DNA of 64,000 bases from Pseudophaeomoniella oleicola. Its lineage: Eukaryota > Ascomycota > Eurotiomycetes > Phaeomoniellales > Phaeomoniellaceae. Shown here piece after piece: positions 1,393 to 34,767 of the stretch. Where the stretch lies: assembly GCA_003868215.1 (NCBI GenBank), contig QWDQ01000048.1:147607-211606 (forward strand). The letters are read 5' to 3'. Below the pieces are notes generated by a model that was not told the origin of the DNA, ran no database searches, and was given only the letters and a program-made list of their open reading frames with translations. Position 1 is the first letter of the stretch. The number at the start of each line of letters is the position of its first letter. Made by a program: the position numbers and the translations under genes.

Positions 1393-2640
1393 CTATTTGG
1401 CAAAGATGTTGCGTAGATTTTCACATGCAATGTCGTAAAATTGGTCAATGTCCTTTTGCTTTCTCCACGGGTTCACGCTCTTATCCCACGCGTGCGGTTT
1501 GCCCTCGACCAGAGTCTGGGAGACGTTCTTCCCGAGGTCTTGTAACCTGTTCGCAAACGCCTGGCCTTCTCTCAAGAGCATGTCGTATTCGCAGAGGTAC
1601 AACTGGATGTCCTGCGGCAAACCGTCTCTCAGCATGCGATCCGAAGCCCTCGCGGGGGAGACGTAAGGGGATGAGTGGTTGATGCCTGCGGCGCCGGGCA
1701 GGTAGGACTGATCGAACAGGTTGGTGAAGAATTTGGGCATCGTCTTTTTGGGCATGAGGCTGATGGCGCGCTTGTCGTCGCGCGGGGTGGCGAAGTCGAT
1801 GAGCGGGTAGAAGGCGACGATGGAGACGATGGTGAGGTCGCCCGAGGAGCTGAGGAGTTGTTTGGTGGATTCGTAGCGGCTGAGTTCGGCGTCGCTGATG
1901 CAGATGGATCTGCCGCGGCGGATGAAGGAGGATGTGTGATATTTGAGGCGCAGGGGGACCGCGAAGGAGAAGTTCGCGCCGGCGGAAAAGCCGCTGAGAG
2001 CGATCCGCGAGGTGTCGATGCTCAATTCGTAGGCGTGGCAGGAGAGCCAGAGGAGGGTATCGACGCAGTCGTCGACAGGTGTTGGAAAGGGGTGTTCAGG
2101 GGCGCGACGGTAGCCGACAGATACCACGATGGCGGGTGTATTCTGGAGGACCATGCGGAACCAGTAGCGGTCGTCGAGGTTGCTGCCCAGCACGAAACCG
2201 CCGCCGTGATAGTTGACGACTACAGGATAGCGATGGCCCTGGCGTTTACGGGTTTGGTAGTCTGGCGGCACGTAGAATGCTAGGTCAATTGGAGTTGAGA
2301 GGTTACCGTCGACGGTGTGGGTTTCGATCTTGCGATGGAATGACGGTTTGGGTGGAGGAGGTGGTGCCCAGTCGTGTATGCGCATGCCGAGCCGCATACA
2401 GCCTCGCCACCATACCGCTTGCACTCGTAGCCACCATCTTGGTTGTTGTGTCTCAGATGTGAGGTTTCCTGACGGCTTTGGAACCGGTGGTAGGTCGGCG
2501 ACAGAAATCGAGATACGCGGATTGCCGCCAGGGGAAAAAACAGTTGGTGAGGTCGGAGAGGTAGGAGAGGTGGGATTAGCTGTCGCAGTCCGGAGCCATA
2601 ATGGCTCTGGTTGTTTGACCAGTTCGATATGGCCGTTCAT
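1393..2640 (-). CDS. Alpha/beta-hydrolase of the hormone-sensitive-lipase type; candidate ergosteryl-aspartate hydrolase
   Basis: A single-exon 415-residue protein. Seen in sequence: the HSL oxyanion-hole motif HGGGF at residues 145-149, the nucleophile elbow GFSAG with Ser219, a likely acid Asp353 (CEYDMLL) and His383 (GKPHAW). This gives a complete Ser-Asp-His triad on an alpha/beta-hydrolase-3 fold. The N-terminus (about 1-60) is low complexity, with a TSP repeat at 23-33 and Pro-rich stretches, and has no clear signal peptide. ATG at 2640 is the first in frame. Family knowledge: such enzymes hydrolyse small or lipid esters. The gene lies divergently next to erdS, which makes it a good candidate for the dedicated Erg-Asp hydrolase ErdH that works with ErdS. 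That assignment is inference from context and fold only; another carboxylesterase or lipase role remains possible. Confidence 0.88.
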   Translation of the reverse strand: MNGHIELVKQPEPLWLRTATANPTSPTSPTSPTVFSPGGNPRISISVADLPPVPKPSGNLTSETQQPRWWLRVQAVWWRGCMRLGMRIHDWAPPPPPKPSFHRKIETHTVDGNLSTPIDLAFYVPPDYQTRKRQGHRYPVVVNYHGGGFVLGSNLDDRYWFRMVLQNTPAIVVSVGYRRAPEHPFPTPVDDCVDTLLWLSCHAYELSIDTSRIALSGFSAGANFSFAVPLRLKYHTSSFIRRGRSICISDAELSRYESTKQLLSSSGDLTIVSIVAFYPLIDFATPRDDKRAISLMPKKTMPKFFTNLFDQSYLPGAAGINHSSPYVSPARASDRMLRDGLPQDIQLYLCEYDMLLREGQAFANRLQDLGKNVSQTLVEGKPHAWDKSVNPWRKQKDIDQFYDIACENLRNIFAK

Positions 2641-5492
2641 GATGACTTTCGGTCACGATAATCGATTCATGTTTGCCCAATGGGGCTTACGAGGAAAGCA
2701 CACGATACTCGGTCGGCAGATGTTCGGGTCAAGTGTCGGATTGTAGACTTTTGTATAAAGAACAACGCGAATTGATAATAGTAACGGTTCTTTCGTTAAG
2801 TTGACGAAGAAAATGATAGCGTGTGCTCTCAATCGTCTGTTGAAAATACCTTGGAAAAGGTTGTCGCAGGAGTTGGAAGACTGAAGTCGTTATCAATCCT
2901 TAGTCTCTTGTCCAACAGGAGTCGCGGATTGGCAATGACGCAAGCTCAATCAGGTAGTGCTTAATTTGGCGTTCTAGAACTAAAGCCTAAGAATGACTTG
3001 TCAACAGTTGGATGCGATACGTTGAGGACGACAGATGGTAGATGAAGTCTGGATAGAGAAGGATGAGAGATGAGAACTAGAAGAGAATGAATACGGTCTA
3101 TCGAAATGACAATTCTTGAAGGAATCTCGTGCGCGATCACATATGTCACGATCTACTACGTAGTAAGTATCATCATTTGAGATGTCCAGGGCCCTGGTCT
3201 GCCCACTCCGCCTTCATCGGCTATTCTTCCGGTGATACTTCGTAGTATTTCGCAGTAATTACTACGTACTACTTCGTATCAGGCCACTGCGGTTGGCTGC
3301 TGGCGATACGACAAGCACGAGTAGATACAACCCCTGTCCTGTACTACGTAGTATCATAGTACAGTAATATAACTAAGGTACATAGTGACTATTCATCTTC
3401 TTGTTGGGCTATCTGCTACCTGCAATGCCTCAACTCCCTTTGATGGAGGTGTGGTGCACTTTTATCTTGACGCCTCAACGCTAAGTTGTTACAGTAGAGT
3501 ATATAATTAGCAGTATCTTAGCCATACATCAGTATCGATATCGGTCTTGCCTGACATCACGGCACCCAACCATGAGTGTCCAATCTGCCATGTACCGTAG
3601 TAGAAGGATTAAGGATTCCAATCCGCCATTTCGTATCATCCGTGGCTGTGCTCTTCCAGTACACGTTACTCTATTGTTACTGTAACTCGTCGAGAGAAAC
3701 GCTTTGATCAACCCACCGTCGTGGCACCCGTAAAACGGCATCATGTTACTAATTTAATACCGCATCGGATTTTGTTCGCCTTCATTACCTTTTCCCGGCA
3801 GACATCGGTTAGGCAGAGATATATACTATTGGTGACCGTCCTGCTGTTTTGTATGCATCCTCTGTACACCCCCTATCTCGATCTTCGTCGCCGTCACCGC
3901 GGTTGCACAATCGCTTCCAGTCATAAAGACGCTTCTTCTCACGATTGGAACACGAGGAGTACAGTATGTTTTTGATCAGTCGATGAGATATGACAGCCTT
4001 CTGTCTATGTTGGAAGCCGGAGAAGTATGAAATGCGAAATGGGTCACTTGCACAGCACTCAGTCCGAACTCTGTGGTGAACAATGACCATCAGATTGTCT
4101 TACAGCCTCCCCTGATCATTGGACTCAAAACTCAGCATTGTTTGCTACGGGCTTCTTCCTGGTCTGTGGCCAGAACCGCCTCCACGGTCAGCAAATTGGC
4201 GGTTACCTTCTTATTTGTAAGCGTTGTGCATACACCATCTGCATGAGCTTGAGTCAGCATCTCTACAAGAAGGGGATCGGCCACAATGTTGTCTGCCCTA
4301 CCACGCTGCCCAGTGCTTCGGGGCACAAAATATCGATGTGGTAGACCGACCATCCGAGGTCTGACAAAAACATCCGACACCTTGTTTTGCTAGCAGCATT
4401 GCCAGGTGCTCTTGCTGGCAATCTACCAATCCCATCCCTCCTCGAGTAATTACCTTGAACTGATTTCAACCCGACGACCGATTTACTTCACAGCAGAGAT
4501 CCCGTCCGCTGCGGCGGACGCATCGCAAGACCACGGCGCCGATTAACCGTGCCTCGGTGTTATTGTAAAGTCCAGGGCGAATGAAACGACGATCCTAATT
4601 GTCGCCTAAACAGACTACGGTGCCCTAGCCTTCCGGCGATCCCTAACAAGCAAAATCAACAACAGAGGTGACTTTAGTTATGAATTTTGGTTTTCTAGTT
4701 AAATGTTGGGCTCCGAGTTTGATGCCTAGGTAATGTATCCCGAGGGAGTTCCATTCTCTTCCATTCTACCTTAGTGATTACCTTCCTTACCTTACTCATC
4801 TTACCTAAGGCGAGTTAACGGTCTCTTGTTTTATGCACCTTGTACGCTATTATGTTGCCCCCCTCGATTATTCAGATGACCTCACTTCTCATAAATTGAC
4901 AGGATTTATTGACCTCGCCCTCTGTCTGCACTACGATACGACGACAACATCACAGATTGCCCCTCGGACACCACGGATATCACTCCTCGGATACAGCTTC
5001 GACTTCCTATCAAAACAAAAATATCGCGGAGGAAAGCAAAAGTATTGCCCGAAACGGCCGGTGGAGCTGGATGAGCGACGGGGACCCCAACCTCGTACCT
5101 TTCTCTTTTCGTTGGTAAGTTCTGTTCTATCCGTCGAGGCCCATACTTCAGCAAAACATGATCCGGTCGCATCGACTATGCAATCATATTCCAATCTTAT
5201 ATGACCCGGCTTGCTCCTCTTTACGTGCATTTCTTCGTCCTTGTCCATCTGTTTGTCTTGTTTACCAAGATTATCTGACGCTGATTCCCGAGCAGACTGG
5301 ATCTCATTCCCGCTCCATTCGTAGCCTTGTTTGCATGGTCGAATAAGATTCCTGATTACCCCACCATAAGCATTGACAAACCTGGTTACGTCAAACTCGC
5401 CATCTCCCGGGGCGCTTGTTCCCTCGTTTCAACTCTCCTTCGCCTTGGGGAAATTTTGTCGCGGTCGGCATCTTATCCAGCACTGATTCAAG
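2641..5492. other. Long divergent intergenic region with TACTACGTAGTA palindromes
   Basis: This is 2.85 kb between two divergent genes and should contain both promoters. It has only short, non-conserved-looking frames. Perfect 12-bp palindromes TACTACGTAGTA occur at 3154-3165 and 3342-3353, with a related run of TACTACGTACT/TTCGTAGTA near 3238-3275. A TACCTTA/CTTACC-rich stretch lies at about 4770-4810. I see no tRNA, transposon ORF or other gene. Confidence 0.6.
5115..5295 (+). other. Possible intron in the erdS 5' leader
   Basis: A consensus donor GTAAGT starts at 5115, a CTGAC branch-like site lies at 5275-5279, and an AG ends at 5295 after a short pyrimidine-containing stretch. Splicing would remove an upstream ATG at 5158 that otherwise opens a ~60-codon frame before the erdS start at 5493. 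This is a sequence-based guess without transcript support. Confidence 0.3.
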
Positions 5493-8381
5493 ATGGTTGA
5501 TCGCGCCGTCTCCGTCAAGAAAGCCCTCTCGAGGGTGATCCCTCAGCTCGGCGAAGAGCGCCATCGCGATGCCAATTCTTCGCCGGCGTCGCCACGTTCT
5601 AGCACCTCTTCACCCCATGGTTGGAAACGTCGTTCTCTCGCAATGGTCTTTGCCAAAGACAATGATTATGTCTCCAGCAGCGACGACGTTAGCGATGACC
5701 CCAGCATGGATAGTATGAGCAAGAACGCGCTGAAAAAGCAGAGAAAGAAGGTTGAGCGCGAGTCAAAAAGTAGTCGTCTCAGCGTTGAGCACAATGTTGA
5801 AGACCAGAATCGACTGAAAGAAAAATTGGAGGAAGCCCAAAAGGCAGAAACCCCAGAGATGAAAGCGCGATATGGAGAAATGCCCCTGGTCCAATCGACA
5901 CATCGTAACACAGACAATCGCATCAAGATTGATACAATCACCGAAGATATGATGGGCCAAGAGGTCTGCTTTCGTGCCAGATTGCATGTCGTTAGGAACA
6001 TGAGCTCCAAGCTCACGTTCCTCGTATTCCGTCAGCAGATCAGCACCGTACAAGGAGTTCTACATGAGGTCCCTGGCGAGAAGACCATATTGTTCATTCA
6101 TTGGGCGGAAAAGCTTCGCACTGGCTCCATTGTCCGGGTCAAAGGTGTAGTGAAGAAACCAGAGGTCCCGGTCAAGGGAGCAACCATCCACAATCTTGAG
6201 ATAGATATCAAGGAGTTGCATGAGATTGTCCATCGCGACGCTAGCGCTCCCTTCTCTGTTTACGAGGCGGAATTGGCAACTTCCGCTGAGGAATCCATCG
6301 AAGGACGACACAGTCATATTCCTGATCGTACTCGTCTCGTTAACCGCATCCTTGATCTTCGGACTGGAACCTCGCAGTCGATATTTCGTATCCAGTCTGG
6401 CGTACAGAACTTCTTCCGAACCACCTTGGATGATTTAGGTTTTATTGAAATCCACACGCCGAAACTACAAGGCGCTGGTACTGAGTCCGGCGCGAGTGTG
6501 TTCAAGCTCGGTTACTTTGGTCGGGATGCTTTCCTTGCTCAGAGTCCCCAGTTGGGCAAACAGATGGCTATTGCATCTGATTTCGAACGGGTTTACGAGA
6601 TTGGGGCTATCTTCCGCGCGGAAAACTCGAATACTCATCGTCATTTAACGGAATACACAGGTCTAGATCTCGAAATGGCCATTGAGGAGCATTACCACGA
6701 AGCACTAGATATTATCGATCAGACGTTGAAGAATATTTTCGCCGGTGTTTACAAGAGATATCGAAGAGAGATTGACATAATCAAGGAGCAATTCCCGCAC
6801 GACGATCTTGTCTGGCTCGAGAAGACGCCCGTCATCCCTTTCAAGGACGCGGTTCAGTTGTTGATAGATTCGGGTTGGTTAGATGAAGAGGGCAACCCGC
6901 CTAGTCCCCTCGAAGATCTCCATACACGCGACGAAATACGCCTTGGCGAGTTGATGAAAGAGAAATATGGAACCGATTACTACATTCTTGATCAATTCCC
7001 CCGTTCTGCTCGTCCATTTTACACCATGCCGTCTCCCATAGACGACCGATTTACGAACTCGTTTGACATCTTTGTTCGTGGTCAAGAGATCATATCAGGT
7101 GGGCAACGTATACACGAAGCCAAAAAGCTCGAAGAAAACATGAAGTCCATGGGCGTTGATCCGGGCACTATGGAAGACTACATTGAAGGTTTCCAATGGG
7201 GCGCACCCCCACATGCTGGTTGTGGTATCGGCCTGGAGCGTATTGTCATGTTGATCTTACAACTCGGCAACATTCGGCTTGCGTCCATGTTCCCGAGAGA
7301 CCCGAAGTCGTTCCCTCCCAAACCAGTTGTCGAGAAACTCCGGTTCCCAGATGCCGATACCCTTCACCCCGTGTGGGCTCGGAAGAAGGAGCACCCTGAC
7401 GAAGAGATTGAGCATATGTTACCTTCGGTGGAAGACCTTGTTGCTAATTATGGTGATTCAACGTCCACTTCTTGGGGTGATGAACGCTTCAAAATTTGGC
7501 GACACAAAGAGACCGGAGCGGCAATGGCCTACGTCCAAAGCCACGGATATGCTATTCTCCCTGGAGATCCACTTTGCGATCCAAGTCAATTCTACAAGGT
7601 TGCATCGGCGTTTTTGCACTATTTGAGGAAAGAGACCAAACTCAAACCTGTATGGCTCTTGTGCTCTGCGCAATTGGAAGAGGTCTTGGGAGAGAAACTA
7701 GGTTGGAAGACTCTATCTTGCACTGTTGAGGAACGTGTCGACGCTACCAAGAACCGAGCAGAACGTGATGCTGAAATCCAACGCAAAATTCGTCACGCTC
7801 AAAGTGAAGGCGTCAAGATCACTGACTGGCCAGAGGGGAAGCCAATTCCAGAAGAACTCAAAGCTCGTTGCGAGAAGCGGGTCAAAGATTGGCAGTCCAA
7901 CCGCAAAGGCACTCAAGTCCATTTGTCCGAAATCCACCTCTTCCGTGATGAGCCTCATCGCCGTTACTTCTTCGCCGAAGACAAGAGTGGTGAGATCTGT
8001 GGTGTAGCGGTACTCTGCTGGCTTGCACCCCGTTACGGCATGCAAGCGAAGTACACTCTGGATTTCCCAGGCGCACCGTCCGGTACGATCGAATGGATCA
8101 CCACCCACGCCATCTCAGCGGCTGGTGCCATGGGTGTGAAGCACATAACTTTCGGAGGTGGTGCAGCAAGTCATCTCGTCCCAGGTCATCACATTAGCGG
8201 TGCGAAGATCAGGTTCCTGCAACACACTTATGACGCGCTTGTCAGGCAGTTCAATCTCAACCGAAAGTCCGAGTTCCGACAAAAGATGGGTGCTGAAGAG
8301 GATCCTTCTTATATCGCTTATCCACCTCACGGTATGGGAAGTAGAGCTATTCGAGCGATCATGGACTTCTTTGAGGATTAG
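5493..8381 (+). CDS. erdS: Ergosteryl-3beta-O-L-aspartate synthase: aspartyl-tRNA synthetase fused to DUF2156
   Basis: An intronless 962-residue frame. Residues 1-130 are a charged Ser/Lys-rich extension. An OB-fold anticodon-binding domain spans roughly 155-245 and a class IIb AspRS catalytic core roughly 275-610. Motif 2 reads FRAENSNTHRHLTEY at 374-388 and motif 3 GIGLERIVM at 578-586; QSPQLGKQ at ~350 is the typical archaeal/eukaryotic AspRS signature. From about 655 to the end is a complete DUF2156 (GNAT-like, bacterial MprF/LysX-type) aminoacyl-transferase domain, including an FGGGAASHLV turn near residue 890. Established knowledge: this AspRS-DUF2156 fusion is fungal ErdS, which charges tRNA-Asp and moves Asp to the 3beta-hydroxyl of ergosterol, making Erg-Asp in membranes. 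Ordinary cytosolic AspRS is expected elsewhere in the genome. Both domains look intact. ATG 5493 is the first in frame and gives the full fusion. Confidence 0.95.
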   Translation: MVDRAVSVKKALSRVIPQLGEERHRDANSSPASPRSSTSSPHGWKRRSLAMVFAKDNDYVSSSDDVSDDPSMDSMSKNALKKQRKKVERESKSSRLSVEHNVEDQNRLKEKLEEAQKAETPEMKARYGEMPLVQSTHRNTDNRIKIDTITEDMMGQEVCFRARLHVVRNMSSKLTFLVFRQQISTVQGVLHEVPGEKTILFIHWAEKLRTGSIVRVKGVVKKPEVPVKGATIHNLEIDIKELHEIVHRDASAPFSVYEAELATSAEESIEGRHSHIPDRTRLVNRILDLRTGTSQSIFRIQSGVQNFFRTTLDDLGFIEIHTPKLQGAGTESGASVFKLGYFGRDAFLAQSPQLGKQMAIASDFERVYEIGAIFRAENSNTHRHLTEYTGLDLEMAIEEHYHEALDIIDQTLKNIFAGVYKRYRREIDIIKEQFPHDDLVWLEKTPVIPFKDAVQLLIDSGWLDEEGNPPSPLEDLHTRDEIRLGELMKEKYGTDYYILDQFPRSARPFYTMPSPIDDRFTNSFDIFVRGQEIISGGQRIHEAKKLEENMKSMGVDPGTMEDYIEGFQWGAPPHAGCGIGLERIVMLILQLGNIRLASMFPRDPKSFPPKPVVEKLRFPDADTLHPVWARKKEHPDEEIEHMLPSVEDLVANYGDSTSTSWGDERFKIWRHKETGAAMAYVQSHGYAILPGDPLCDPSQFYKVASAFLHYLRKETKLKPVWLLCSAQLEEVLGEKLGWKTLSCTVEERVDATKNRAERDAEIQRKIRHAQSEGVKITDWPEGKPIPEELKARCEKRVKDWQSNRKGTQVHLSEIHLFRDEPHRRYFFAEDKSGEICGVAVLCWLAPRYGMQAKYTLDFPGAPSGTIEWITTHAISAAGAMGVKHITFGGGAASHLVPGHHISGAKIRFLQHTYDALVRQFNLNRKSEFRQKMGAEEDPSYIAYPPHGMGSRAIRAIMDFFED

Positions 8382-8962: not shown

Positions 8963-10366
8963 ATGTCGGCGGAGGCTCACCATGGCATTGTCCGGGGTAT
9001 GCGCATTGCAATCACAGCTCTGCTCCATTCTTCTACCTACGTGTACTAACCCCTTCCCTCAGATATTGTCGGCGATGGCTTGTTAGCGACTATCGGATCT
9101 GAAGCCCTTCTGGCAGAACTACAAAGGCGACAAGATGATCTGCCAAAGCCACAGTGTGGCTCCAAGAAAGAAGCCTCTTACAACACTCCCCTGCACGTCT
9201 TCGCCCTGGCCCTGATCCTATTTATCAGCACCCTTGCTTGCGCCTTTCCGATTCTCGCACGACGATTCCCCAAGCTACCAATCCCGCGAAACTTCCTATT
9301 CTTCTCCAAACATTTTGGCACCGGCGTGTTGATCGCAACGGCGTTCGTGCATCTGTTACCTACCGCCTTCGTCTCGCTCACAGATCCATGTCTGCCGTCG
9401 TTTTGGAACCAGGGATACCCGGCTATGGCTGGTCTGATAGCCATGACGTCGGTATTTTTTGTCGTCAGCATTGAAATGGTCTTCGCTATTAAAGGTGCAG
9501 GACACGTACATGGAAGCGAATGGGATGTTCTCGGGGACGAACCCGACATGCACCACCACGCATCGATACGGGGAGGGGACATTGGACGAGGACGAGGCGA
9601 TTCATTCGGCATGCGCATGCAGCGTCTGGACGGATCTGCCGAGAACCTCGTCAAAGGCAAACAAAAGGTAGATCAGCCGAATGGCGGCTACCGCGATGCA
9701 GCAGGAGCAGACGATGAAGACGAAGAAGAAGACGACATAGACACCGACCTCGATCTCGAAGACCTCGACCCGGCTACCGCGCCAACACAATCATCTCACA
9801 CGCACCGCCCTCACAACCACCACCGTGGCTACTCGGCGACCACCGACACGATCGACGCTCAAAACCCGCAAAAGCAACTCCTCCAATGCCTCCTCCTCGA
9901 AGCCGGCATCCTCTTCCACTCGATCTTCATCGGCATGTCCCTCTCCGTCTCGACCGGCTCCCCCTTCATCGTCCTCCTGATCGCCATCTCCTTCCACCAA
10001 ACCTTCGAAGGCTTCGCGCTCGGCTCCCGCATCAGCGCCCTCATCCCGACCTTATTCCCCCCCTCGTCCCCCAAACCGTGGCTCATGGCGCTCGCCTACG
10101 GCACGACCACGCCCATCGGCCAAGCCATCGGCCTCATGCTGCACAACCTGTACGACCCCGCGAGCGCGACCGGTCTGCTCATGGTCGGCATCACAAACGC
10201 CGTCAGCAGCGGCCTGCTCCTGTTCGCCGGGCTCGTCGAATTGATCGCCGAGGACTTTCTGAGCGATCGCTCCTACGAGGTGCTGCGGGGGAAGAGGCGG
10301 CTGCAGGCCTGTGCGGCGGTCGCGGGCGGGGGTGCGTTGATGGCGCTGGTCGGGGCTTGGGCTTGA
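8963..10366 (+). CDS. ZIP-family zinc/iron transporter (Zrt-like)
   Basis: Two exons, 8963-8996 and 9063-10366 (intron 66 bp, GTATGC...CTCAG, phase 1), giving about 445 residues. The spliced start reads MSAEAHHGIVRDIVGDG and joins a membrane protein. TM1 follows HVFALALILF; the next helices include HFGTGVLIATAFVHLLP and a helix ending in SIEMVFA. A long cytosolic loop rich in His, Asp and Glu follows (acidic run around EDEEEDDID, HTHRPHNHH). The last helices carry the ZIP metal-site residues HSIFIG and HQTFEG in TM4/TM5. Family knowledge: plasma-membrane or vacuolar Zn(II)/Fe(II) uptake into the cytosol. The 3' half is strongly C/G-ending in codon use compared with the 5' half and neighbours. 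The upstream ATG 8982 is out of phase, so 8963 was chosen. Confidence 0.93.
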
Positions 10367-20742: not shown

Positions 20743-22499
20743 ATTGGCAGTGTTCTGCAACGCCTGTCGAACAGTATAAGGATATTGATCCGACCCACGG
20801 GACGTCACGATGAGTTCAACGTCAAAAAGATTGTGGTTGAGAGGACGGAAACGTCAAGAGATACTATTCTGCTAAATATGTATCGAGCTGTCAAGACGTC
20901 AGAGCGTCCGTCAGTCAAGGCTTGGGGGAGCTCGCCTACCAGGCGGATATTCCCGCGCTCAGCTTGATTGCATAATACCCGAGGTACAACATAAGGTAGC
21001 TTCATGCTTCATCACGTAGTTCAAGTCATAACTACTACGTACTCGCCTAATATTATCCTCTGAGCAGCAAAGTGAGTACCTAGATAGTTACAGTAGGTAT
21101 GGCATAATGAGAGGTCACTACCTCCTAGATAACATATACCTCTTCGTCCTGTCAGTACTCTTGCTGTTGCACAATTGAGTACAGCTGGTACGTTTTGGGT
21201 CCCCTTAATTACTAAAGAGCATACTACGTAATTAGTAAGGTACCTAGGTAGGTAGGGAGGGAGATAAAAGGGACCTAAATCTGGACCGTGCGAGTGTAAC
21301 TACTACGTACTGTATCTTGACGTGTCCATAGTAAACACGCCTAAGGCACGACCACTGGCGCCGCAGAACCCGAACTTATCGCCAAAACCGAAATAGTTCA
21401 GCGGCTCCAATGCTCCTAGGGCTTCTGCAAGCCAATTGTTACACCACCCCTCGCGTCTATCTAAACCATCCCTTCCATCCACGACAACCTTGGATGACAA
21501 TATTGACAACCCGCCCGTTCTTCAGGTCTCCCACTTCTCCTCCATTGACGTGCACCGCGACCTTTGTTTTGCTTCATCGTGTGTCACCTTTTGACTACTG
21601 TGACCGCGTACCGTGACTGTGATCGCGCGACACCTCAACAGCGAAATGGCTAACGAATCTTATCCCTACCTAAATGTTGAGATGGATTGTCGTGATAGAC
21701 TCATCCGAGTACAACCTATGATACTGGACAAGCAAATTGAGGTTTGGAGAAAGTTGAAATGATTGTGAGAAAAGCAAGCAAGGGTTCTTGTCTTGTCCAT
21801 TGTTGGTTCTCATTCCACGTACCGTTATGTGTATGCTCGTAGAGACAATGGCCATTCTCAGTGCAAGGTCACTAAGAAACCCTTTAACTTAGCAAGGGTC
21901 GCTTTTCGTAGTAGTCGTAAGGTAATTAATTAGTTTTGGATAGGGATGGGCGATGGGACTGGGACTGGACTGGGATTGGGACTGCGAGACTGGCTCACTG
22001 GCTCACTGGGACTGGGACTGGCGACGATCCCGTTGACCCACGCTAAACCACTTCCGCTTCCAGCGCATCTTCCTGCCTCTCGACTTTCCCTGGCCGACCG
22101 TACAGTATCAATATCACTATCGTGAACTGCCACAACCACCAATCCCACCTCCACCTGGCGACTGTATCTCCTCAGACCAAACCTAGGCCTCATATTGCAA
22201 CAGCGTCACTTGAGCGCAGCGCTTGTTATACGCCAAATATCCGAGTTGAAGTTGCCTGGAGCTGTAGCCGACATTCCAACCAGTTTCACTAGCTACCTAA
22301 CTCACTTCGAGAGGGGCTAACGCATCAGCAAGGCGACGAACATAGAATCTACTCGCACGACATCGCCTCAGATCTTCTTCTTCGACTTCGGCGGACATTA
22401 CTAGAACTATCACGATCTCCACGAATTGTCGTTGCGCAAACGATCGGCGGTCCAGAGCGGACCAGTCAGTCCAGCTCTCGGAAGCGCTGAGCTAGAAAC
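20743..22499. repeat. Divergent intergenic region with palindromic motifs and a GGGACT repeat
   Basis: 1.76 kb between the divergent aminopeptidase and cdh1 genes. TACTACGTA-type motifs occur near 21033, 21222 and 21300, and a perfect TACCTAGGTA lies at 21241-21250. A degenerate GGGACT/GGCTCACT tandem run covers about 21953-22021. No gene or RNA is seen. The final ~250 bp is probably the cdh1 leader. Confidence 0.65.
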
Positions 22500-33151: not shown

Positions 33152-34767
33152 ATGTCGTCCGACTTCTCATCAAACAGAGCACCCTCCCTGCCAAGAGCAT
33201 CCTCCCAGCCGAGTACTCTGAACGAGGCGGTGGCTGCCGAGCTCGATCATGCTGCCCCCGTTTCAAGTAGCTCATCCGAGAACTTGTTGGACGACGGTCC
33301 ATTGACACCGGCGCTGTCAGCGTCACCACCAAGTCCAAACCTTTCTCGTCCCGCTTCGTTCTCGGGAAATAGTAGTTATCACGAAGACTGGGACGCTTTT
33401 CCCCCTCTAGAGAAGCTTACGGTTTTCGATTTTCTCGATAATATCGCATTGCCGCAACGAATAGAGAAATGGCAGCAGTCTATATCGGCGCAGACGGAGA
33501 GGATGTTGAAACAGCGGCAAAAACTAAGAGCGCAGGGCACCAAGACTAAGGAACGAGCCATGGCAGAATGGAAGAAGCGGGCGCCAACAGCAGATGAGCA
33601 AATCGAAAAATATAGGGCCAGGATTACTCGGTTGACCAAGCGCTTCAGCGAGGCTACCACAGTCACCGTCAGAGAAAAGGCTTCATTCATAGCAGGTGTG
33701 CTGAATGTATTCATATCCGGCTACCTCATTGGTGCATATCCAGAACATTTCTACCTCTGGTTCACCGCTCAGCTGTGTTATTTCATGCCGATCCGATATT
33801 TTACCTACCACAAGAAAGGGTATCACTATTTTCTGGCCGATCTGTGTTACTTCGTCAACTTCCTCTGTGTACTCTCACTCTGGGTTGCACCGAAGTCTAA
33901 GCGACTATTTATCAGCACATATTGTCTCGCATACGGTAATAATGCCGTTGCGATCGCTATGTGGAGGAATTCCATGGTTTTCCACAGCCTGGATAAGGTC
34001 ACAAGGTCAGCTACGCGTAATCTTGGGTGCTACTTGTGCTGACTTTTCACAGTCTTTTTGTTCACATAATGCCGCCTGTGACACTCCATTGTCTGGTGCA
34101 CCTCACCTCAGAGTCTATCCTTCAGGAGCGTTTCCCGGCTATTCACAGTATCAAGTTCAGTCCAAAGGGATCTCCAGAACATTATTCTTTGTGGGCAATG
34201 ATAGTGTGGGCAACCGTACCATATGCGGTGTGGCAGCTATCCTATCATTTCTTGATCACCGTGCGTCGCAGAGAGAAAATCAAAGCCGGTCGACCGACTT
34301 CGTTCACCTGGCTGCGAAAGTCATACGCAAACACATGGATTGGTGATTTCGTGCTCAATCTGCCGGAATACTTGCAAGAGCCGGCATTTATGATGATCCA
34401 GTACTCCTATGCTCTATTCACCATGATTCCATGTCCACTCTGGTTCTGGTATCGTTGGGCAAGTGCAGCGTTTCTATTCTCTGTTTTTTCGTGGAGCATT
34501 TATAACGGTGCAACCTTTTACATTGACATATTCTCGGGGCAGCGATTCCAAAGAGAGCTGGAGAGTCTGAAAAAGGAGGTTGCGAAATGGCAAGCGAACC
34601 CTGACGTCACCGCCAGCCCCTCTCTTTCAGCCGATAAGCGGACGACAGGAAAATCGGATGAGAATATTGACATGTTGCCTGCGTTGGATGGAGGTGCAGT
34701 TAGTGCATCGACTGGCTCCGATCGTGGTGTTGAGGAATCTGCAAGAGAGCGAAGAACCGGCGAGTGA
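33152..34767 (+). CDS. gpc1: Glycerophosphocholine acyltransferase Gpc1 (DUF2838 family)
   Basis: Two exons, 33152-34005 and 34053-34767 (intron 47 bp, GTCAGC...TTCACAG, phase 2), about 522 residues. The N-terminal ~100 residues are Ser/Pro-rich and disordered. A basic helical stretch follows (RMLKQRQKLRAQGTKTKERAMAEWKKRAP). The DUF2838 membrane core carries about eight hydrophobic helices; marked segments are YLWFTAQLCYFMPIRYFTY, FLADLCYFVNFLCVLSLWV, LAYGNNAVAIAMWRNSMVFH, HIMPPVTLHCL across the junction, and YSLWAMIVWATVPYAVWQL. Established knowledge: yeast Gpc1 uses acyl-CoA to acylate glycerophosphocholine to lyso-PC in the ER, part of phosphatidylcholine turnover. The C-terminus is a charged coiled region. 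Membership is clear from the family core; activity here is inferred. Confidence 0.9.

What the first reader, a model, noticed from the sequence alone, without database searches (positions are those of the whole stretch)
1393..8381. erdS and a divergent HSL-type hydrolase: a candidate synthesis/turnover pair for aspartylated ergosterol
Seen: a complete AspRS-DUF2156 fusion next to a complete alpha/beta-hydrolase (Ser219, Asp353, His383), in divergent orientation with no gene between. Established: fungal ErdS makes ergosteryl-3beta-O-aspartate from Asp-tRNA, and a separate hydrolase, ErdH, removes Asp. Inference: the neighbouring hydrolase is ErdH, so the window would hold the whole Erg-Asp cycle as a two-gene cluster.
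Basis: partly seen in the sequence, partly recalled or inferred. Interest (0 to 1): 0.75.

Follow-up and report, generated by a model that had tools for sequence, protein, structure and literature searches.

The report
Fungal ergosterol-aspartate enzyme pair, probable
Two neighbouring fungal genes look like the maker and the probable remover of an amino-acid tag (aspartate) on the membrane sterol ergosterol; the maker is a known kind of enzyme and the remover is a good but unproven candidate.

Summary
Window 5493-8381 (+) is an intact 962-aa AspRS-DUF2156 fusion with a full-length match to fusion chains in the PDB (9w9f: residues 7-962, 1369 bits), so an ErdS by architecture. Window 1393-2640 (-) is an intact 415-aa HSL-type alpha/beta-hydrolase with HGGG, Ser219, Asp353 and His383. 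They are divergent, 2,852 bp apart, with no recognisable gene in the part of the gap scanned.

The inference (hydrolase = ErdH) is plausible but untested. The window's genome is not held, no characterised ErdH sequence was reachable, and the two primary papers are not held. The relatives found are generic HSL esterases: 51 prokaryotic proteins at 21-31% identity and PDB esterases, two of them fungal, at 20-26%. They neither support nor exclude sterol-aspartate specificity. A predicted basic amphipathic helix (67-84) and a roughly 30-residue insert lacking in nearly all 51 relatives would suit a membrane substrate. SREBP-like sites in the gap are a weak, post hoc lead.

The pathway is published; this is another occurrence of a known pair, if the inference is right. 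Interest is low to moderate.

The parts
1393..2640 (-). HSL-type alpha/beta-hydrolase, 415 aa, candidate ErdH (Erg-Asp hydrolase)
   Evidence: Abhydrolase_3 E=2.8e-41; HGGG 145-148, Ser219, Asp353, His383; AlphaFold2 model pTM 0.79 with esterases as top structural matches
2389..2442 (-). codons of residues 67-84, predicted basic amphipathic helix, possible membrane anchor (inference)
   Evidence: second highest hydrophobic moment among the 18-residue stretches kept in the scan, 0.548, hydrophobicity 0.799, net charge +4; helix 65-84 in the model, at low confidence (pLDDT about 44-60)
2641..5492 (.). divergent intergenic region, 2,852 bp, no recognisable gene in the frames scanned
   Evidence: no Rfam family
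3278..3288 (+). SREBP(SrbA)-like site ATCAGGCCACT (fits the published A. fumigatus consensus); weak lead
   Evidence: consensus from PMC4223079 (passage)
3707..3717 (+). near-SREBP-like site, one position off the published consensus; weak lead
5115..5295 (+). candidate 5'-leader intron of erdS (GTAAGT ... CTGAC ... CAG); pattern match only
5493..8381 (+). ErdS: aspartyl-tRNA synthetase fused to a DUF2156 aminoacyl-tRNA transferase domain, 962 aa
   Evidence: tRNA-synt_2 and LPG_synthase_C; full-length match to 9w9f_A, 9w9g_A and 9w9e_A

Best explanation
The two divergent genes are most likely the ergosteryl-aspartate pair of a filamentous fungus. ErdS charges tRNA-Asp with its AspRS half and its DUF2156 half moves the aspartate onto the 3-beta-hydroxyl of ergosterol. 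The neighbouring HSL-type serine hydrolase (Ser219-His383-Asp353, HGGG oxyanion hole) sits on the membrane through a basic amphipathic helix and cuts the aspartyl ester, giving back ergosterol and aspartate (ErdH). Shown here: both genes, their domains, the catalytic residues, the adjacency. Established in the literature for ErdS: the synthesis reaction. Inferred: that this hydrolase is ErdH, its membrane attachment, its substrate.
For: Domain architecture and full-length PDB match of ErdS. Intact HSL catalytic machinery in the neighbour and an HSL-type predicted fold. Direct divergent adjacency with no recognised gene in the frames scanned. With some 30-60 such hydrolases among about 10,000 genes in a filamentous fungus (recalled figures), an Abhydrolase_3 gene would flank a given gene by chance in roughly 1% of cases. 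The N-terminal helix 67-84 is strongly hydrophobic, amphipathic and basic, and a stretch around 236-268 is missing from at least 48 of 51 prokaryotic relatives at each sampled position, both compatible with a membrane-lipid substrate. That a deconjugating enzyme exists is stated in PMC8172173 (passage).
Against: No sequence test against a characterised ErdH was possible. The hydrolase's nearest detectable relatives are ordinary prokaryotic HSL esterases (21-31% identity), it falls below the cut-off of all 7 NCBIfam models it touches, and its top structural matches are general esterases. The 2.85-kb gap is long for a co-regulated pair. Its third-position GC (0.70) differs from erdS (0.53). Conservation of the adjacency was not tested.
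Confidence: 0.68

Rival explanations
1. The hydrolase is an ordinary HSL-type carboxylesterase or xenobiotic/secondary-metabolite esterase that lies next to erdS by chance; the true ErdH is elsewhere in the genome.
For: Abhydrolase_3 is a large family in fungi (recalled); all relatives found are generic esterases; long gap; different third-position GC from erdS.
Against: Chance adjacency of this family to erdS is only about 1% by a recalled estimate; N-terminal helix fits a lipid substrate.
Confidence: 0.22
2. The hydrolase acts on a related conjugated sterol (for instance a steryl acetate, as yeast Say1 does, or ergosteryl-glycine) rather than on Erg-Asp.
For: Same superfamily and a sterol-ester type of chemistry (Say1 recalled, not tested); ErgS makes ergosteryl-glycine in ascomycetes (PMC10449517, passage).
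Against: The neighbour is the aspartate-specific ErdS, not ErgS; no Say1 sequence was available for comparison.
Confidence: 0.1

Closest known systems
ErdS, ergosteryl-3beta-O-L-aspartate synthase (A. fumigatus AFUA_1G02570; PDB chains 9w9e/9w9f/9w9g are, by their architecture, this enzyme)
   Same: AspRS plus DUF2156 in one chain; full-length collinear match; gene name and locus seen in PMC11619415 (passage)
   Different: Sequence divergence only; no difference in architecture seen
ErdH, Erg-Asp hydrolase (Yakobov et al. 2020; not held, recalled)
   Same: Hydrolase partner of ErdS in turnover; here an HSL-type hydrolase next to erdS
   Different: Not compared: no ErdH sequence was reachable
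HSL-family (Abhydrolase_3) esterases with solved structures, e.g. 2yh2, 1jji, 7wol and the Rhizomucor miehei esterases 4wy5/4wy8
   Same: Fold, HGGG motif, Ser-Asp-His triad
   Different: 20-26% identity in the structural alignments listed; the window protein has a longer N-terminal region, and against the 51 prokaryotic relatives an insert around 236-268; GFSAG instead of the GDSAG found in 35 of 51 relatives
Bacterial LysX / MprF-type aminoacyl-lipid synthases and their aminoacyl-PG hydrolases
   Same: Synthase plus hydrolase logic for tRNA-dependent lipid aminoacylation (PMC10580965, passages and reference titles)
   Different: Glycerolipid rather than sterol; weak LysX match to the synthetase part only (61.5 bits against a cut-off of 742)

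Membership tests
ErdS | AspRS domain of class II fused to a C-terminal DUF2156/LPG_synthase_C domain in one chain | tested here: met
   (residues 279-603 and 656-943); full-length match
ErdS | Transfers Asp from Asp-tRNA to ergosterol | not testable with these tools
   needs enzymology or lipid analysis
HSL-type (Abhydrolase_3) hydrolase | HGGG oxyanion motif, GxSxG nucleophile, Asp and His of the triad, alpha/beta-hydrolase fold | tested here: met
ErdH | Orthology to the characterised ErdH | not tested
   no ErdH sequence reachable; primary papers not held
ErdH | Hydrolyses Erg-Asp | not testable with these tools
   needs an assay
ErdS-ErdH gene pair | Adjacency conserved in other fungi | tested here: inconclusive
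   scans with hydrolase and ErdS in viral contigs and hydrolase in prokaryote genomes gave no fungal locus; no fungal collection was available and the own genome is not held

The most novel reading that the evidence does not exclude
The complete Erg-Asp cycle is a divergent two-gene module under sterol-sensing (SREBP-type) control, with a membrane-attached HSL hydrolase dedicated to removing aspartate, so that the fungus adjusts the charge of its ergosterol when sterol or oxygen falls.
Probability: 0.08. Interest if true: 0.5.

Novelty: new member of a known kind. Interest (0 to 1): 0.3.

Why it matters
If the neighbour is ErdH, the pair allows the maker and remover of a recently found fungal lipid to be studied, co-expressed and deleted together, and gene adjacency becomes a way to find ErdH in other fungi among many similar esterases. 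The pathway itself is already published.

Tried and rejected
Own genome: not held, so a search for a better ErdH elsewhere could not be made. Primary papers, Yakobov 2020 and 2022: asked by DOI and by PMC id, not held. ErdH in print: the searches list no paper that by its title concerns a fungal ErdH; others (A. fumigatus locus tags; Erg-Asp phrases) gave no account of erdH or of the erdS neighbourhood in the listings and passages I looked at. Note that only openly licensed papers are held. My recollection that the 2020 paper itself notes a link between the two genes is not verified.

All 80 titles are bacterial or archaeal. Of these 80, I took 58 by hand (chosen without a fixed rule, several close relatives left out), dropped 7 for length outside 250-420 aa, and aligned 51; the 5 viral-contig loci were not used.

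Regulatory motifs: eight patterns tried in the gap (first-order Markov shuffles). ATCANNCCAC: 2 found, 0.085 expected, 0 of 200 shuffles as high. SltA AGGCA: 5 found, 4.45 expected. CCAAT: 10 found, 5.98 expected. CGG-N12-CCG: 1 found, 0.33 expected. Two other sterol-element patterns: 0 each. TACTACGTAGTA and TACGTA are over-represented but are a local repeat. With the published SrbA consensus only 1 of 3 window matches lies in the gap, so this is a weak lead: pattern picked after looking, no correction for eight patterns.

Structure second look with VIA-align: library absent. Possible in-frame N-terminal extension of ErdS through a leader intron: rejected because a stop lies three codons before the ATG in that frame.

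Full report
Observation. The window carries an uninterrupted 962-aa ORF at 5493-8381 (+) and an uninterrupted 415-aa ORF at 1393-2640 (-), both preceded by in-frame stops. Pfam gives tRNA-synt_2 (E=2.9e-71, residues 279-603) and LPG_synthase_C, the DUF2156 family (E=6.6e-14, residues 656-943), for the first, and Abhydrolase_3 (E=2.8e-41) for the second. They are divergent and 2,852 bp apart.

ErdS. The fusion protein aligns from residue 7 to its end with PDB chains 9w9f_A and 9w9g_A (947 aa; 1369 and 1344 bits) and from residue 104 with 9w9e_A (862 aa; 1318 bits). The next best are yeast-type AspRS chains that cover only the synthetase half (456 bits). The PDB listing names these chains 'Aspartate--tRNA ligase, cytoplasmic' without organism; that they are ErdS is my inference from the DUF2156 half. 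9w9g differs from 9w9f at several residues of the synthetase site, so it looks like a designed mutant. ErdS catalysing Erg-Asp synthesis through AspRS and DUF2156 activities is stated in PMC9437257 (passages); the A. fumigatus gene is AFUA_1G02570 (PMC11619415, passage). Membership by architecture is met; activity was not testable.

Hydrolase. Catalytic features: HGGG 145-148, Ser219 in GFSAG, Asp353, His383. In 51 prokaryotic relatives Ser219 and His383 are kept in 51 and Asp353 in 50. An AlphaFold2 model from that alignment has mean pLDDT 77.3 and pTM 0.79, with 206 residues at 90 or more; the first 47 residues are almost all under 50. Its best PDB matches are HSL-type esterases: 2yh2, E=6.6e-20, target TM 0.77, 24% identity; the 50 rows shown of 1819 are all esterases or lipases and include the fungal Rhizomucor miehei esterases 4wy5 and 4wy8 at 21-22%. 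By sequence, 111 distinct PDB chains match at E<=0.001, best 2yh2 at 8.8e-23, among them a hormone-sensitive lipase (8zvq). All 7 NCBIfam models that it touches score far below their cut-offs. So the protein is an HSL-type hydrolase with no closer assignment.

What might make it a sterol-ester enzyme. Residues 67-84 form a predicted basic amphipathic helix (moment 0.548, hydrophobicity 0.799, charge +4). It has the second highest moment of the stretches kept in the scan (those with a proline after the third residue were left out); the highest, 396-413, is acidic and less hydrophobic and is a core helix of the fold. The model has a helix at 65-84, at low confidence. Residues around 236-268 are absent from at least 48 of 51 relatives at every sampled position and lie in a low-confidence part of the model. 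Both are compatible with a membrane substrate and prove nothing about aspartate.

Gap. Of 18 stop-to-stop frames of 65 aa or more that overlap the gap (two gene frames aside), 10 were scanned with no Pfam match at E<=1. No tRNA or Rfam family was found in the window. An 11-base site at 3278 fits the SrbA consensus (A/G)TCA(T/C/G)(C/G)CCAC(T/C) of PMC4223079 (passage), and a second at 3707 is one position off. The strict consensus has 3 matches in the 64 kb, 1 in the gap; the relaxed RTCANNCCACY has 4, 2 in the gap, about 1% by a hand binomial, after eight patterns had been tried. The passages of PMC4223079 that I searched do not mention an aspartyl-tRNA synthetase. This is a lead only.

What could not be tested. 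The window's genome is not held. The collections at hand are prokaryotic or viral; scans gave no fungal locus. Yakobov 2020 and 2022 are not held.

Judgement. The pair reading is the best explanation (0.68), resting on ErdS identity, the right chemistry in the neighbour and the low chance of such a neighbour (about 1% on recalled gene counts). An unrelated esterase is the main rival (0.22), another conjugated sterol as substrate a smaller one (0.10). The cycle is published (a set of conjugating and deconjugating enzymes is mentioned in PMC8172173, passage), so this is a new member of a known kind.

Setting. The neighbours are ordinary fungal housekeeping genes: ZIP transporter, epimerase, histidine kinase, M18 aminopeptidase and Cdc20-like protein, SMC, DUF2838, NUDIX, Sec23 and others. 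The source as a filamentous ascomycete is my inference; no call named it.

Noticed in passing
window 3154-3353 and 21029-21311: Short palindromic repeats TACTACGTAGTA / TACTACGTACT: four copies in the erdS-hydrolase gap with spacings 82, 24, 82 and two 15-base copies near 21.0-21.3 kb; possibly a dispersed short repeat.
   Followed up: partly
window 5115-5295: Candidate 5'-leader intron of erdS by splice-site pattern; several upstream ATGs precede the ErdS start.
   Followed up: partly
window 1393-2640 and 9080-10366: Third-position GC is about 0.70 for the hydrolase and the ZIP transporter ORF against 0.52-0.56 for erdS and four other ORFs measured.
   Followed up: no
window 33152-34767: DUF2838 membrane protein, recalled as the family of yeast glycerophosphocholine acyltransferase Gpc1, another lipid-remodelling gene, about 25 kb from erdS and interrupted in the reading frame, probably by an intron.
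   Followed up: no
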